From: Candidatus Poseidoniaceae archaeon
GTDB lineage: Archaea; Thermoplasmatota; Poseidoniia; Poseidoniales; Poseidoniaceae
DNA length: 64,000 nucleotides
Direction of reading: 5' to 3'
Assembly: GCA_949372655.1 (NCBI GenBank)
Contig: CASIAI010000008.1
Coordinates: 62,001-126,000, forward strand
In this document: in pieces, positions 11,114 to 15,996 of the stretch
Layout: each line of letters starts with the position of its first letter
Position numbering within the stretch: the stretch's first letter is position 1
Translations under genes and position numbers: made by a program
Notes under the pieces: model-generated
Database searches by the model: none
Told to the model about the DNA's origin: nothing
Seen by the model: the letters and a program-made list of their open reading frames with translations, nothing else

Positions 11114-11163
11114 AAGGTCCTATGCTTTACTTCTTGCCTTGAAAAGTGAATCAAGTACGCAAA

Positions 11164-11237
11164 CGGGCGCGGCAGGATTTGAACCCGCGATCTTCGGCTT
11201 AGGAGGCCGACGCATTATCCAGCTATGCTACACGCCC
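11164..11237 (-). tRNA. tRNA-Arg (CCT)
   Basis: Cloverleaf on minus strand: acceptor GGGCGTG/CGCGCCC, anticodon loop CTCCTAA, T loop GGTTCAAATCC. Confidence 0.93.
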
Positions 11238-11274
11238 AAACAGTCCAGCGCACATTCAGCAATGAGCATTACGA

Positions 11275-12426
11275 TTACTGACTAGAAATTTCGGCAACGT
11301 TCATCATGAATTTTTCTAATTCAATTCTTGGTTGCGAGGTTTTCTGAATTGCAACTTCGCATTTAGCTAAAGAGATTATCAGTTTTGATAAATCATTGTC
11401 CATTAGGTGGAGTCTTCCTTCAGTCAATAGTTTGTGAAGATGTTTAACTACATCCTCGGCTTCCAGGCTTTGAGCATCCATAATTTGGTCTAAAACACCC
11501 ATGGCCCCTTTCAATACTCGTGTATTTTTATTACCGATTTTTTCCCATTTCCAATCATGTACGCGCCCACGCATCGCTTCTTCGAGCATAAGTTGAATTT
11601 CCCTGTGTGCTGAAGAAGCTATCACTTCCTGAAGGTTTTTCCGTGTTTGAAGCATATTTCTATGTGTTAAAACTTCGAGAAGGAAAATTGCTTTACGAAC
11701 ATTACCATCAGAGACGTGCGCAATATCCCCTAACACTCCTTTGGCTGGGGTCAGTTCTTCCTCTTTCGATATATTTTCTAAAATAACCTCTATGTCTTGC
11801 CTTTTAGCTTTCGGAATTCGGATATGCTGAGTTCTACTTCTGAGCGCTTCTATTAGCCGAGAGGGGGTTGTTGTTGTGAAAATAAAACGGGCACTATTGC
11901 TACTTTTCTCCATCATCCTTCGAAGATAAGATTGGCGTATATTACCCAAGGAATCTGCATCCTCGATAACTATGATTCTTGAAATCGGTATACTTTGTGA
12001 ATCTTTACTAGATTCAAAACCGGCAGGTGGGCCTTTGTCTCCTTTGATGTTCGTCAATGATGAGTCATAAGCATCTAAACTAGTTCTTCCTGCTAAAGTA
12101 TCGTTTGAATTGCTCCCTTCTGGTCGTAAAAAGGTTTCAAATTTAGCCATTGCACCACTAGTTCTTGCTAAGTCTTTAGCATTTAGAACATGAGTTGTGG
12201 ATTCATGGGCAGGGCCTAAGACTTGTCTTGCGATTAATCTCCAGATAGCAGTTTTGCCAGAACCCGAGGGGCCTGAAATCAATAGGTGTGGTGGATTTGA
12301 TTGTAATGAGGCTTTTTCAATTGTCTCAATAATCTTATCTGGAACAAGTAAATCTCGGAAAAGCAAAGGTGCTTTTGACTCTAACCAAGATGGCATGATA
12401 TCAGTCATAAGGCGGAGGTCTTTCAA
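11275..12426 (-). CDS. AAA+ ATPase, replication factor C small subunit-like clamp loader
   Basis: Walker A GPSGSGKTAIWR, Walker B-like IIVIEDAD, sensor FIFTTTTPSRLIEALRSRTQHIRI. Confidence 0.85.
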   Translation of the reverse strand: MKDLRLMTDIMPSWLESKAPLLFRDLLVPDKIIETIEKASLQSNPPHLLISGPSGSGKTAIWRLIARQVLGPAHESTTHVLNAKDLARTSGAMAKFETFLRPEGSNSNDTLAGRTSLDAYDSSLTNIKGDKGPPAGFESSKDSQSIPISRIIVIEDADSLGNIRQSYLRRMMEKSSNSARFIFTTTTPSRLIEALRSRTQHIRIPKAKRQDIEVILENISKEEELTPAKGVLGDIAHVSDGNVRKAIFLLEVLTHRNMLQTRKNLQEVIASSAHREIQLMLEEAMRGRVHDWKWEKIGNKNTRVLKGAMGVLDQIMDAQSLEAEDVVKHLHKLLTEGRLHLMDNDLSKLIISLAKCEVAIQKTSQPRIELEKFMMNVAEISSQ

Positions 12427-12663: not shown

Positions 12664-13311
12664 TCAGTACAATCCACCGACTAAACCTGGCATTAATCGT
12701 ACCTTTTGAGCACCCTGTAAGTCTGTTTTAGCCAAGTCGTTAGTTGCAACCATTCTGTTGTCAACAAAAATCCAAGTTCCTTCGCAATTAGTTGCGCGTT
12801 GTATTAATTCGGGCTTTGTCATCACAACTTCCGAGTGACCGGTTTCGTCAGCAATTTCAACAATGAAACTTACTTCGTCATCTTGATTTCCACCGACTAA
12901 TCCGGGCATAGCCCTCAAACGGCTACTTTGTTCAATCTCCATGGACTTTAACTCGGATGCTGATACCATCCTGTCATCGACAAAAAGCCATGTCCCTCCA
13001 GAATTGGCTGTTTCCACTAACTCACCTTTAGACATTTCAACTATGGAGTGACCGGTTTTATCTGCGACTTCAACTGTGTAGAGTTCTTCTTCCTCTGAAC
13101 TGCCACCAATAATACCTGGCATTATTCTAATTTTAGAATCTAGGCTAATCTCCATCTCTTCTATTTCTTTGGATTCCACTAGCCTATTATCGACAAAAAC
13201 CCATGAGCCTTTCGACTCATTAGCCTTTTCAACTATTTCTGGTGCGGTCATTTCAACAACTGAGTGCCCAGTTGAATCTGCTATCTCTACAATGTACTTC
13301 TTATCTGACAT
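12664..13311 (-). CDS. Tandem triple ubiquitin-like beta-grasp candidate protein, each repeat ending in GG
   Basis: Three ~71-aa repeats: (Y/F)xVE(I/V)AD.TGHS.V.M....(L/I)v..A....g.W.FVD.R.V.........(K/R)(I/L/V)R.MPG(I/L)(I/V)GG. Confidence 0.85.
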   Translation of the reverse strand: MSDKKYIVEIADSTGHSVVEMTAPEIVEKANESKGSWVFVDNRLVESKEIEEMEISLDSKIRIMPGIIGGSSEEEELYTVEVADKTGHSIVEMSKGELVETANSGGTWLFVDDRMVSASELKSMEIEQSSRLRAMPGLVGGNQDDEVSFIVEIADETGHSEVVMTKPELIQRATNCEGTWIFVDNRMVATNDLAKTDLQGAQKVRLMPGLVGGLY

Positions 13312-13395
13312 GATACTTCCTCGGAAGTACAGAAACTCTAGTGTATATAATAAAACGCGAACATCTACTAAAAGCAGACTAAGAGATACTTTTGG

Positions 13396-13467
13396 CGCCC
13401 ACTCCGGGAATTGAACCCGGGTCGCAGGAATGACAATCCTGCATGATAACCTCTACACCAAGCGGGC
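13396..13467 (-). tRNA. tRNA-Asp (GTC)
   Basis: Acceptor GCCCGCT/AGTGGGC, anticodon loop TTGTCAT, T arm CCGGGTTCAATTCCCGG. Confidence 0.93.
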
Positions 13468-13535: not shown

Positions 13536-15137
13536 ATGGCTGGAAAAAAAACATCTGCTGAAAAAGCACGTGAAGATGCTGAAAATGAGAAAGTAGATAA
13601 TATGCTTGATGGGGCTTTTGGTACACTGAGTGGCCTTGAAACCAATAAACACGAAGAAAGTCTGCCTGAAGAAGTTCAAAACCTTGAAGAAGATATTTAT
13701 TCAAATGAAAAAGATAACGAGCAAAATCTAGAGCCTGAAATATCTGAAGAACAAGAAATCATTGAAATATCTGAAAAAGAAGACTATGATGATGAAGCTG
13801 GAAACACCTCTAATAATGAAGAAATCCCCCTCAATACAGATACTCTTGCGATAGAAGAAGAGGATAAAACGCCTCCTGCTTTACCCCCTAACAATCCTAT
13901 GGCAGAAGGCTCGCCAAGTGGTCCACCATCCAAAGGCCCACCAAGTGGCCCACCATCCAAGGGTCCACCAAGTGGCCCACCATCCAAGGGTCCACCAAGT
14001 GGCCCACCATCCAAGGGTCCACCAAGTGGCCCACCATCCAAAGGCCCACCAAGTGGCCCGCCTACCGACTTACCATCTGAAAATATACAAGATGAGGTCG
14101 TTGTTGAAACTGTTGAAGAAGCATCTACTGCAATGGAAGATACCTCTGTAGAAAATGATGTCAACATGGAACAAGAAGTTGCCGAAGAAGCCATAGAGGC
14201 TGAACCTGCCGAAGAAGTCGCTGAAGAAGCACCATCTACTGAAATGAAAGATGATGATTCTAATCTTGTACAGGATGTTGTTGAAGAAAACTTGGATATG
14301 CCAGACGTAATGTCCAATGAGGAGGATTCAATTGAAGAAACCGTTGATATAATCGAAGAACAGCACATGATTTCCGAACTAGAGCATTCCGAAGTTTCTA
14401 TTGAATTAGAAACTGAAGCTGAAATCGCAAGACTTTCGGCAGAGGTTGAAAGATTGAGAAAGTCTATGGCTGGAGCGGCTGAAGTAATAGAGGATCTAGA
14501 AAATCCTCCTATGCCTCCAACTGTCATGGATAACTTGGTGATTGGAGCGCATATTGTAGGAGACATGGCAAGGTTGGCGAGACAATTAGACCGTGAACAA
14601 CTGATACGCGCCTCTATGGGAACTATCGCCATGCTTCATCCAGACCAATTAGAAATTATTGTTTCTACAAAGCATATGGCTCTGCTTCCAAGAATGGATG
14701 AGCGCGATATATGTGCCGCAAAACTAGGAGTCAATCCCCCTCGTGGAGCGCCTGCAGATTGGCGAGTTCTTGAAGTCGTTTTAGCATCTGTTAGCTTGAT
14801 TACTGGAGGACCCGCCGCAGTAATACACTCTCATGGACCTTTTACAACCGCTGCAAGTTGTGAGAAGGACCTAGTTTTGGTTCAACCAATAGATGAAATT
14901 GGAAAGAAACATATTGGCAAGATCATAATTGTTGACCCTGATGACGATAACCCTGAAGAATTCCTTAGACAAGTTGCTGAAGCACTACAACAAGGTGGAA
15001 TGCGATGTGTAGTTATTCGAGGCAAAGGGGCTTATGCCGTAGGCGCTGATTTAGATCAAGCGTGGGCAAATGCTGCAATGCTCGAGCACAGTATGAAGAT
15101 AGTTCTACTTGCAAGACAAGCAAACTTGAAGGTGTGA
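13536..15137 (+). CDS. Acidic low-complexity N-terminus and PSGPPSKGP repeats fused to a class II aldolase/adducin-like domain
   Basis: Very acidic first ~300 aa; C-terminus LGVNPPRGAPADWRVLEVVLASVSLITGGPAAVIHSHGPFTTAAS...HIGKIIIVDPDDDNPEEFLRQVAEALQQGGMRCVVIRGKGAYAVGADLDQAWANAAMLEH resembles class II aldolases. Confidence 0.8.
   Translation: MAGKKTSAEKAREDAENEKVDNMLDGAFGTLSGLETNKHEESLPEEVQNLEEDIYSNEKDNEQNLEPEISEEQEIIEISEKEDYDDEAGNTSNNEEIPLNTDTLAIEEEDKTPPALPPNNPMAEGSPSGPPSKGPPSGPPSKGPPSGPPSKGPPSGPPSKGPPSGPPSKGPPSGPPTDLPSENIQDEVVVETVEEASTAMEDTSVENDVNMEQEVAEEAIEAEPAEEVAEEAPSTEMKDDDSNLVQDVVEENLDMPDVMSNEEDSIEETVDIIEEQHMISELEHSEVSIELETEAEIARLSAEVERLRKSMAGAAEVIEDLENPPMPPTVMDNLVIGAHIVGDMARLARQLDREQLIRASMGTIAMLHPDQLEIIVSTKHMALLPRMDERDICAAKLGVNPPRGAPADWRVLEVVLASVSLITGGPAAVIHSHGPFTTAASCEKDLVLVQPIDEIGKKHIGKIIIVDPDDDNPEEFLRQVAEALQQGGMRCVVIRGKGAYAVGADLDQAWANAAMLEHSMKIVLLARQANLKV
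13917..14063 (+). repeat. 27-bp in-frame tandem repeat encoding SGPPSKGPP (5 full units plus partial)
   Basis: Repeated agtggyccaccatccaarggyccacc visible by eye. Confidence 0.95.
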
Positions 15138-15177: not shown

Positions 15178-15996
15178 ATGGCGAATAAACCAAAACTTGC
15201 TGTTTCAGCATGTCTTCTTGGACAAAAAGTAAGACATAATGGTGATGATGCTGAATTTAAAATGCTCTCAAGAAAATGGAGTGAACACCTAGAATTAATT
15301 CCATTGTGCCCCGAAGTTGGCATTGGAATGGGTGTGCCAAGGCCGATTATAAGATTGGAAAGAAAAGATGGTAAAATAAAGTTAGTTAATCCTAAAAATG
15401 GTGAAGACTTTACTGATAGAATGCTAGAATTTTCTGAAGTTCAGTCTGACCTTTTGGCTTCCTCAGGTGTATGCGGTTTTGTTTTCAAGAAAGACTCTCC
15501 AAGTTGTGGTGTTGAAAGAGTGAAGGTATACAGAGAAGATAATTCACATGCGGCCAGAGACGGAAGAGGCATGTTTACTACCGTATTTACTACTCTAAAT
15601 CCTCATATTCCAGTAATCGAAGAAAGTCGTATGAGTGATTCAAAGCAAGCTGAGCACTTTCTAGCATGTGTTCACTTTTTCCATGAATGGTTAATAACAG
15701 GGAAAGGTGGATGGAATGCTAGAAAAATTATCCAATTCCATAATGATAATAAATTATTCCTGTTAAGTAGGGCGTCTGCTTCAAAAAGAATGCTTGAAAG
15801 ATTAATTTTCGATTTATTTGACAAAAAAGTAAATCCTGAGTTTATAGCTCTTGAATATATGACTGAAGCCCAAAAAGCGCTTAATACACTAACTAGTAAA
15901 GGTCGTATTACTCACGCAGTGGAAAGAACCGTTGGTCAGTTCTCAGAAAAGTTAACTAAAGATCAGACGAAGAAAATTATAGATTTGCACCTCTAG
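15178..15996 (+). CDS. DUF523/DUF1722 (YbgA-like) protein
   Basis: SACLLGQKVRHNGD, PLCPEVGIGMGVPRPIIRL, KKDSPSCGVERVKVY typical of DUF523; C-terminal DUF1722-like region. Confidence 0.88.
   Translation: MANKPKLAVSACLLGQKVRHNGDDAEFKMLSRKWSEHLELIPLCPEVGIGMGVPRPIIRLERKDGKIKLVNPKNGEDFTDRMLEFSEVQSDLLASSGVCGFVFKKDSPSCGVERVKVYREDNSHAARDGRGMFTTVFTTLNPHIPVIEESRMSDSKQAEHFLACVHFFHEWLITGKGGWNARKIIQFHNDNKLFLLSRASASKRMLERLIFDLFDKKVNPEFIALEYMTEAQKALNTLTSKGRITHAVERTVGQFSEKLTKDQTKKIIDLHL

What the first reader, a model, noticed from the sequence alone, without database searches (positions are those of the whole stretch)
12664..13311. Poly-ubiquitin-like protein: three tandem beta-grasp-like repeats, each ending in Gly-Gly
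Seen directly: GG pairs at residues 69-70, 140-141 and 212-213 (spacing 71 and 72). Each is preceded by the same module: YIVEIADSTGHSVVEMTAPEIVEKANESKGSWVFVDNRLVESKEIEEMEISLDSKIRIMPGIIGG / YTVEVADKTGHSIVEMSKGELVETANSGGTWLFVDDRMVSASELKSMEIEQSSRLRAMPGLVGG / FIVEIADETGHSEVVMTKPELIQRATNCEGTWIFVDNRMVATNDLAKTDLQGAQKVRLMPGLVGG-LY. The order strand-turn-strand-helix-strand(+'xFVDxR.V')-'L/I.R.MPG(L/I)(V/I)GG' parallels ubiquitin (beta1-beta2-alpha-'RLIFAGKQL'-'STLHLVLRLRGG') in length and layout. Acidic linkers SSEEE and NQDDE follow the first two GGs. Two residues (LY) follow the last GG, as in ubiquitin-fold precursors needing proteolytic maturation. Known archaeal modifiers (SAMP/Urm1/MoaD/ThiS) are single domains; tandem ones are eukaryotic polyubiquitin and bacterial multiubiquitin-type proteins. 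A modifier role is inference.
Basis: partly seen in the sequence, partly recalled or inferred. Interest (0 to 1): 0.85.

Follow-up and report, generated by a model that had tools for sequence, protein, structure and literature searches.

The report
Archaeal tandem ubiquitin-like protein precursor
An abundant group of ocean archaea carries an unannotated ubiquitin-like system in which two to four small ubiquitin-like modules are strung together in one protein, much like eukaryotic polyubiquitin, and the same genomes encode a matching activating enzyme and a matching cutting enzyme.

Summary
Window 12664-13311 (minus strand) encodes 215 aa: three 65-66 residue repeats (48-55% identical), each ending MPG(I/L)(I/V)GG, with acidic linkers and a two-residue cap (LY). 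The repeat model has the ubiquitin topology (mean pLDDT 85), its best structural matches are ubiquitin-fold proteins, and a profile of the repeats retrieves ubiquitin from the PDB sequences. The family occurs in 151 of 347 genomes of the class of Cand. Poseidoniales (Marine Group II), as 1, 2, 3 or 4 repeats. Elsewhere in the window's genome sits a two-gene operon: a ThiF/E1-like enzyme, then a JAMM-type protease. In other Poseidoniales the same three partners are adjacent (Ubl-E1-JAMM), with E1 fused to JAMM, or with two Ubl repeats fused to E1. Ubl and E1 co-occur (p=5e-9 in another family). One clade has AG instead of GG; the last Gly is kept in all 145 repeats examined. No canonical E2 was found. 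Best reading: a polyubiquitin-like precursor cut after Gly-Gly by the JAMM enzyme, activated by the E1 and attached to proteins. Cutting and attachment are inferred. It is a new archaeal variant of prokaryotic Ubl/E1/JAMM systems (nearest: bacterial polyUbl operons).

The parts
12664..13311 (-). CDS, 215 aa, three tandem ubiquitin-like modules
   Evidence: purifying selection
13102..13299 (-). ubiquitin-like repeat 1 (residues 5-70), ends MPGIIGG
   Evidence: profile match E=1.5e-32
13102..13107 (-). Gly-Gly of repeat 1 (residues 69-70)
   Evidence: translation
13084..13101 (-). acidic linker 1, SSEEEE (residues 71-76)
   Evidence: translation
12889..13083 (-). ubiquitin-like repeat 2 (residues 77-141), ends MPGLVGG
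   Evidence: profile match E=6.3e-29
12889..12894 (-). Gly-Gly of repeat 2 (residues 140-141)
   Evidence: translation
12871..12888 (-). acidic linker 2, NQDDEV (residues 142-147)
   Evidence: translation
12673..12870 (-). ubiquitin-like repeat 3 (residues 148-213), ends MPGLVGG
   Evidence: profile match E=6.3e-33; AlphaFold2 model pLDDT 85
12673..12678 (-). Gly-Gly of repeat 3 (residues 212-213)
   Evidence: translation
12667..12672 (-). C-terminal cap Leu-Tyr after the last Gly-Gly, to be removed for maturation (inferred)

Best explanation
The gene encodes a polyubiquitin-like precursor of a Marine Group II archaeal Ubl system. Shown by sequence and modelling: three ubiquitin-fold modules, each with a C-terminal Gly-Gly tail, plus a ThiF/E1-like enzyme and a JAMM metalloprotease encoded together elsewhere in the same genome (G000:C1:473538-474191 and 474191-474748), whose relatives are linked or fused to this Ubl family. 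Inferred: the JAMM enzyme cuts after each Gly-Gly, removing the Leu-Tyr cap and the acidic linkers to release single modules with a free glycine. The E1-like enzyme then adenylates the glycine and passes the module, via its conserved cysteine or directly, to target proteins. The JAMM enzyme can also remove it again. No canonical E2 is present, so transfer is probably E2-independent, as thought for SAMPs, or uses an unrecognised transferase.
For: Fold: topology E3-10 E13-20 H21-30 E34-38 E41-43 H45-48 E59-63, tail disordered; top PDB matches are mostly UBLs, ISG15, SUMO, NEDD8, MoaD, ThiS and a bacterial Ubl-DUB complex. Sequence profile to PDB retrieves ubiquitin aligned through its GG. E1: ThiF 52.6 bits over cut-off, best PDB matches MccB, Uba4, UBA5, E1; GxGGxG, Asp, Lys kept and an invariant Cys aligned with the SCAEGG Cys of the genome's UbaA-like enzyme. 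JAMM: E...HxHP(5-6)SxxD kept in all 60 members; profile to PDB gives AMSH-LP, STAMBP, Sst2, Rpn11 and BilC as 22 of 23 hits, best E=0.001; 14 of 22 members weakly hit Prok-JAB. Linkage: operons Ubl-E1-JAMM (L034, L035, L047, L051), Ubl then E1-JAMM fusion (L036, L037, L045, L110, L111, L114-L116), two Ubl repeats fused to E1 followed by JAMM (L117, L118, L159). Co-occurrence Ubl-E1 46/4/8/42, p=2e-15; in another family 11/1/0/28, p=5e-9. Internal repeats all keep GG or AG, 61 of 61. Nearly all terminal repeats carry a cap needing removal.
Against: No conjugate or cleavage has been observed. No canonical E2, and the E2-like candidate X is absent from this genome. In this protein the repeats have diverged (48-55%) and keep positional identity across species, so they could be a fixed trimer rather than a precursor of equal units. 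One clade has AG, not GG. The JAMM model was poor, so that fold rests on sequence motifs. In this genome the Ubl gene is not next to the E1-JAMM operon.
Confidence: 0.68

Rival explanations
1. A sulfur carrier: the E1 activates the C-terminal glycine to a thiocarboxylate that donates sulfur in biosynthesis, with JAMM as a maturase, as in the QbsE/QbsD or CysO/Mec pathways (known from the literature, not tested here).
For: JAMM maturation of a capped Gly-Gly tail is known there; Ubl, E1 and JAMM are the same three parts; many single-repeat members end GG plus 1-2 residues. The E1 conserved Cys aligns with the UbaA Cys used in sulfur relay families.
Against: Tandem arrays of 2-4 modules; no rhodanese domain on this E1; the genome has a separate ThiS/MoaD-like protein and a separate UbaA-like E1 with rhodanese. 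No sulfur-transfer gene was recognised beside the E1-JAMM pair in the window's genome.
Confidence: 0.17
2. A fixed multi-domain Ubl, like ISG15 or BilA: the modules are never separated; only the last C-terminus is uncapped and conjugated as a whole, or the array is a scaffold.
For: Repeats in the window protein have diverged and keep positional orthology across species. BilA is a tandem Ubl uncapped by its JAMM protease (PMC11354881).
Against: Every internal repeat examined keeps GG or AG (61 of 61), with synonymous-only change at the tail codons; a fixed multimer would not need internal tails. Linkers follow each internal GG. Repeat number varies 1-4.
Confidence: 0.12
3. Chance or unrelated small domain: the tail resemblance to ubiquitin is convergent and the link to E1/JAMM coincidental.
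For: No Pfam or NCBIfam family passes its cut-off.
Against: Fold model, E1 fusions, operons and co-occurrence.
Confidence: 0.03

Closest known systems
Bacterial polyUbl operons (type 6e of Iyer et al. 2006, PMC1779556)
   Same: One to three tandem Ubl domains of 70-75 aa linked to an E1-like enzyme and a JAB/JAMM domain, often fused to each other.
   Different: Described there only in bacteria (proteobacteria, cyanobacteria, actinobacteria). There JAB is N-terminal of E1 and an inactive E2/RWD domain and a metal-binding protein accompany it. Here JAMM is separate or C-terminal of E1, no RWD partner was recognised, repeats reach four, and the Ubl itself can be fused N-terminal to E1.
BilABCD (bacterial ISG15-like system)
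   Same: Tandem Ubl whose C-terminal cap is removed by a JAMM protease before E1 activation (PMC11354881). BilC appears among the JAMM profile hits.
   Different: Bil has a dedicated E2 and a large E1 with two adenylation domains and a Cys domain. Here the E1 is a minimal ThiF of about 217 aa and no E2 was found. PADLOC BilA does not match.
Archaeal SAMP / UbaA / HvJAMM1
   Same: Archaeal Ubl, ThiF-type E1, JAMM protease, no canonical E2 (PMC4443979).
   Different: SAMPs are single ThiS/MoaD-type domains. The window's genome has its own separate ThiS/MoaD-like protein and UbaA-like enzyme with rhodanese, so this is an additional system.
Caldiarchaeum ubiquitin operon with CsRpn11 (PMC6043591)
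   Same: Archaeal ubiquitin precursor processed by a JAMM enzyme (abstract). A proteasome N11-like protein (6fjv series) is a hit of the JAMM profile.
   Different: There a eukaryote-like Ub, E1, E2 and RING (PMC5654768); here no canonical E2 and a ThiF-type E1.
PRTRC system (ThiF family protein TIGR03736)
   Same: PRTRC_ThiF is the best NCBIfam match of most of the E1s scanned here (42-69 bits).
   Different: Well below the family cut-off of 144.75 bits; other PRTRC components were not recognised.
Eukaryotic polyubiquitin
   Same: Head-to-tail Ubl repeats with GG at each joint and a short terminal cap; repeat profile aligns to ubiquitin through its GG.
   Different: Repeats here are diverged, joined by short linkers, and not Pfam ubiquitin family members.

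Membership tests
Ubiquitin-fold (beta-grasp) superfamily | beta-beta-alpha-beta-beta-(short helix)-beta topology | tested here: met
   AlphaFold2; Foldseek (top hits mostly UBL domains, prob up to 0.98, but TM only 0.4-0.54 and E 0.02-0.2)
Ubiquitin / polyubiquitin (PF00240) | passes the Pfam ubiquitin model | tested here: not met
   no ubiquitin match, although profile search of PDB sequences finds ubiquitin
Ubiquitin / polyubiquitin (PF00240) | tandem modules with Gly-Gly at every joint | tested here: met
   AG in one clade
ThiS/MoaD/SAMP (PF02597) | passes the ThiS model | tested here: not met
   one member of 35 at E=0.12 only; the genome's real ThiS-family protein is elsewhere
Bacterial polyUbl operon (type 6e) | tandem Ubl repeats plus E1 and JAMM in one neighbourhood | tested here: met
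   tandem Ubl with E1 and JAMM together in L117, L118, L159; in the window's genome Ubl and E1-JAMM lie on different contigs
Bacterial polyUbl operon (type 6e) | JAB N-terminal to E1 and an inactive E2/RWD domain | tested here: not met
   JAMM is separate or C-terminal; gene X in some loci has an invariant Cys and no confirmed E2 or RWD match
BilABCD | dedicated E2 (BilB) and BilA match | tested here: not met
   PADLOC BilA no match; PF00179 absent from 99 of 100 relatives, the exception on a contig that looks foreign
E1/ThiF family (partner gene) | ThiF domain over Pfam cut-off, GxGGxG, catalytic Asp | tested here: met
   52.6 bits v 28.1 cut-off; alignment
JAMM/MPN+ metalloprotease (partner gene) | E ... 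HxHPx(n)SxxD metal site | tested here: met
   all 60 members; PDB profile hits AMSH, Rpn11, BilC
JAMM/MPN+ metalloprotease (partner gene) | JAMM fold | tested here: inconclusive
   model pLDDT 56, fold search meaningless
Protein modifier | covalent attachment to target proteins | not testable with these tools
   needs biochemistry or proteomics

The most novel reading that the evidence does not exclude
Marine Group II archaea independently evolved polyubiquitin-type genes: arrays of 1 to 4 Ubl modules cut into single modifiers by a dedicated JAMM protease and conjugated by a minimal E1 without a canonical E2, giving an archaeal modification system outside the SAMP/Urm1 and Asgard/Caldiarchaeum ubiquitin lineages.
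Probability: 0.42. Interest if true: 0.88.

Novelty: new variant of a known kind. Interest (0 to 1): 0.77.

Why it matters
Marine Group II is among the most abundant archaea of the surface ocean, and no paper found in the searched library describes this system in it. The system shows the three core parts of ubiquitin signalling (modifier, activator, remover) in a minimal form with many natural architectures (separate genes, E1-JAMM fusion, Ubl-E1 fusion, 1 to 4 repeats). That makes the origin of polyubiquitin precursors and of E2-independent conjugation directly testable with small purified proteins.

Tried and rejected
Single-protein searches gave nothing usable: Pfam, NCBIfam, PADLOC and single-sequence PDB search of the window protein only returned sub-threshold noise; homology appeared only with family profiles. 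A broad alignment (A1) was too diverse for the DNA-pattern scan; a narrower one (A2) worked. Viral contig scans failed twice because the machine gave no answer, so viral copies are untested. The AlphaFold2 model of the JAMM protein was poor (pLDDT 56) and its fold search is disregarded. Gene X as an E2: an invariant Cys in a W..[IV]C context with a downstream WPGD motif in most members resembles E2 active sites, but PDB profile search found no E2 and hhalign to one E2 was not significant; left as a lead. The one canonical E2 hit (G031) lies on a contig whose genes look eukaryotic or viral, so it was discounted. An operon link with the RFC-like gene downstream was considered; synteny is conserved in 54 loci but the gap is mostly 220-280 bases, so a functional link is not claimed. 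My first ungapped repeat identities (about 0.30 for repeats 1 and 2) were too low because of a one-residue gap; the BLAST values (48-55%) replace them.

Full report
Observation. The minus-strand ORF 12664-13311 encodes exactly the protein quoted. Its three repeats are 48-55% identical (repeat 1 against 2 and 3) with E about 1e-27, each ends MPG(I/L)(I/V)GG, and Leu-Tyr follows the last Gly-Gly. Full-length three-repeat orthologs in four other species have dN/dS of 0.045-0.08. All three tail Gly-Gly pairs are kept although their codons have changed synonymously, while the non-tail GG inside repeat 2 is GA in one species.

Organism and distribution. The window lies in contig C8 of a 1.58 Mb, 75% complete genome. 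Relatives found in public genomes are Candidatus Poseidoniales / Marine Group II. A repeat profile finds the family in 151 of 347 genomes of the class, in 19 of 25 genera. Proteins carry one repeat, two, three or four (L078, 284 aa). In a 395-genome sample of the phylum, the partner E1 at E<=1e-20 was found only in genomes of this order. The one record labelled Gammaproteobacteria (L119) was not resolved.

Fold. AlphaFold2 of repeat 3 with 35 homologous repeats gives pLDDT 85, pTM 0.70 and the order strand-strand-helix-strand-strand-short helix-strand with a disordered C-terminal tail. This is the ubiquitin topology. The top Foldseek matches in the PDB are mostly ubiquitin-like: MIDN and PLIC UBLs, ISG15, Get5, SUMO, NEDD8, MoaD, ThiS and a bacterial Ubl-deubiquitinase complex. 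Scores are modest (E 0.02-0.2, TM 0.4-0.54), as expected for 70 residues. A sequence profile of the repeats against PDB sequences retrieves mainly ubiquitin. Full-sequence E-values of 1e-10 to 1e-4 for poly-ubiquitin sum over repeats; single ubiquitins score E 0.3-1.7, with the aligned region running through to the Gly-Gly. No Pfam, NCBIfam or PADLOC family passes its threshold or gives a sensible match.

Partners. The genome has two ThiF-type proteins, one ThiS-family protein and a weak Prok-JAB hit. One ThiF protein is a UbaA-like enzyme with a rhodanese domain; with the ThiS-family protein it makes up the ordinary archaeal set. The other ThiF protein, 217 aa at G000:C1:473538-474191, overlaps by one base a 185-aa protein at 474191-474748. 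That second protein keeps a JAMM signature: the Glu and HTHPGFMAYWSSTD. The signature is kept in all 60 relatives seen. A family profile retrieves JAMM deubiquitinases from the PDB as 22 of 23 hits: AMSH-LP E=0.001, STAMBP, Sst2, an N11-like protein, BilC and Rpn11. The weak Prok-JAB hit is a second JAMM-like gene at C1:443575-444327, not next to an E1 or Ubl gene. The E1 is over the Pfam ThiF cut-off. NCBIfam places the E1s nearest PRTRC_ThiF or ThiF, well below cut-off. Its invariant Cys155 aligns with the conserved SCAEGG Cys of the UbaA-like enzyme.

Linkage. In other Poseidoniales the three are neighbours: Ubl-E1-JAMM as separate genes (L034, L035, L047, L051), Ubl followed by an E1-JAMM fusion (L036, L037, L045, L110, L111, L114-L116), and two Ubl repeats fused to E1 followed by JAMM (L117, L118, L159). 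In 100 relatives Ubl and E1 co-occur 46/4/8/42 (p=2e-15). In the 40 genomes of the other family it is 11/1/0/28 (p=5e-9), with presence and absence alternating within several genera. Relatedness makes the p-values optimistic, but the fusions are independent evidence.

Tails and repeats. Of 145 repeats 102 end GG, 42 AG and 1 YG; the final Gly is kept in all. Some come from closely related genomes. All 61 internal repeats examined keep GG or AG. Nearly all terminal repeats are followed by 1-12 residues, so an uncapping protease is needed for a free glycine; one single-repeat protein (L042:271-507) ends exactly at GG. AG-clade genomes such as G030, G037 and G059 retain E1 and JAMM. The repeat tree shows positional orthology within the window's clade, and separate duplications in the fused lineage (L117/L118), the AG clade and Poseidonia. 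The window protein is therefore not undergoing homogenisation like eukaryotic polyubiquitin.

E2. PF00179 is absent from 99 of 100 relatives; the exception sits on a contig that looks foreign. Some systems contain a third gene X between Ubl and E1, or fused to Ubl (L162), with an invariant Cys in a W..[IV]C context. It was found in 11 of 340 class genomes at E<=1e-4, one of them weakly, and not in this genome. X could be an E2-like transferase, but this is unproven. The window's genome is only 75% complete, so absence there rests on its relatives as well.

Reading. Shown: a conserved tandem ubiquitin-fold protein with glycine tails, and evolutionary and physical linkage of its family to a specific E1-like enzyme and a JAMM protease. 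Inferred: cleavage after each Gly-Gly, adenylation, and attachment to proteins without a canonical E2. The main rival is a sulfur-carrier role; tandem arrays, absence of rhodanese and the presence of a separate ThiS/UbaA set argue against it. Another rival is a fixed multi-Ubl; conservation of every internal tail argues against it.

Known systems. The nearest are bacterial polyUbl operons (PMC1779556), BilABCD (PMC11354881), SAMP/UbaA/HvJAMM1 (PMC4443979) and the Caldiarchaeum ubiquitin operon with CsRpn11 (PMC6043591, PMC5654768). [quoted passage not shown] Papers on Poseidoniales or Marine Group II with ubiquitin in the library do not, by title and abstract, describe this system; one mentions RING and UCH genes in a single Marine Group II environmental genome (PMC4327156). 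Most subscription papers could not be searched.

Noticed in passing
L158:737-1498, L119:6489-7220, L039:1629-2324 (-), L042:6711-7556, L162:2135-3232 (-): Gene X (about 230-280 aa) lies between Ubl and E1, or between JAMM and E1 (L158), or is fused to the Ubl C-terminus (L162). Invariant Cys in W..[IV]C, followed by WPGD in most; possible E2-like transferase, no library match.
   Followed up: partly
L014, L017-L025, L060, L064, L066-L087 (most): One clade of two-repeat proteins ends its modules in QAG or LAG instead of GG while its genomes keep E1 and JAMM.
   Followed up: partly
L120, L050, L049: A more distant single-repeat relative ends VAG, with E1 and JAMM in the same locus in L120; that E1 carries a C-terminal Myb-like DNA-binding domain.
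   Followed up: no
window 11275-12426 (-): An RFC small-subunit-like clamp loader gene follows the Ubl gene in 54 related loci, with a gap of mostly 220-280 bases; conserved synteny of unknown meaning.
   Followed up: partly
window 13393-13467 (-) and 11163-11238 (-): tRNA-Asp just upstream of the Ubl gene and tRNA-Arg downstream of the RFC-like gene, same strand.
   Followed up: no
window 13536-15137 (+): Long acidic, GPPSKGPPS-repeat region fused to a class II aldolase domain; neighbour of the Ubl gene in many related loci.
   Followed up: no
window 15178-15996 (+): TudS-like 2-thiouracil desulfurase family protein with a DUF1722 tail, near the Ubl gene and conserved in many related loci; a possible sulfur link not pursued.
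   Followed up: no
L122:9575-10327 (G000:C1:443575-444327): A second JAMM-like protein (HTHPNAPAIPSEAD) in the same genome, not linked to E1 or Ubl.
   Followed up: no
G024 (L035) and G034 (L034): Genomes of the same genus carry two systems: the three-repeat Ubl and a separate single-Ubl-E1-JAMM operon with a longer tail after GG.
   Followed up: partly
L119 (PAEL01000101.1): Ubl, X and E1 in a record labelled Gammaproteobacteria; may be a misassigned contig or a mobile element.
   Followed up: no
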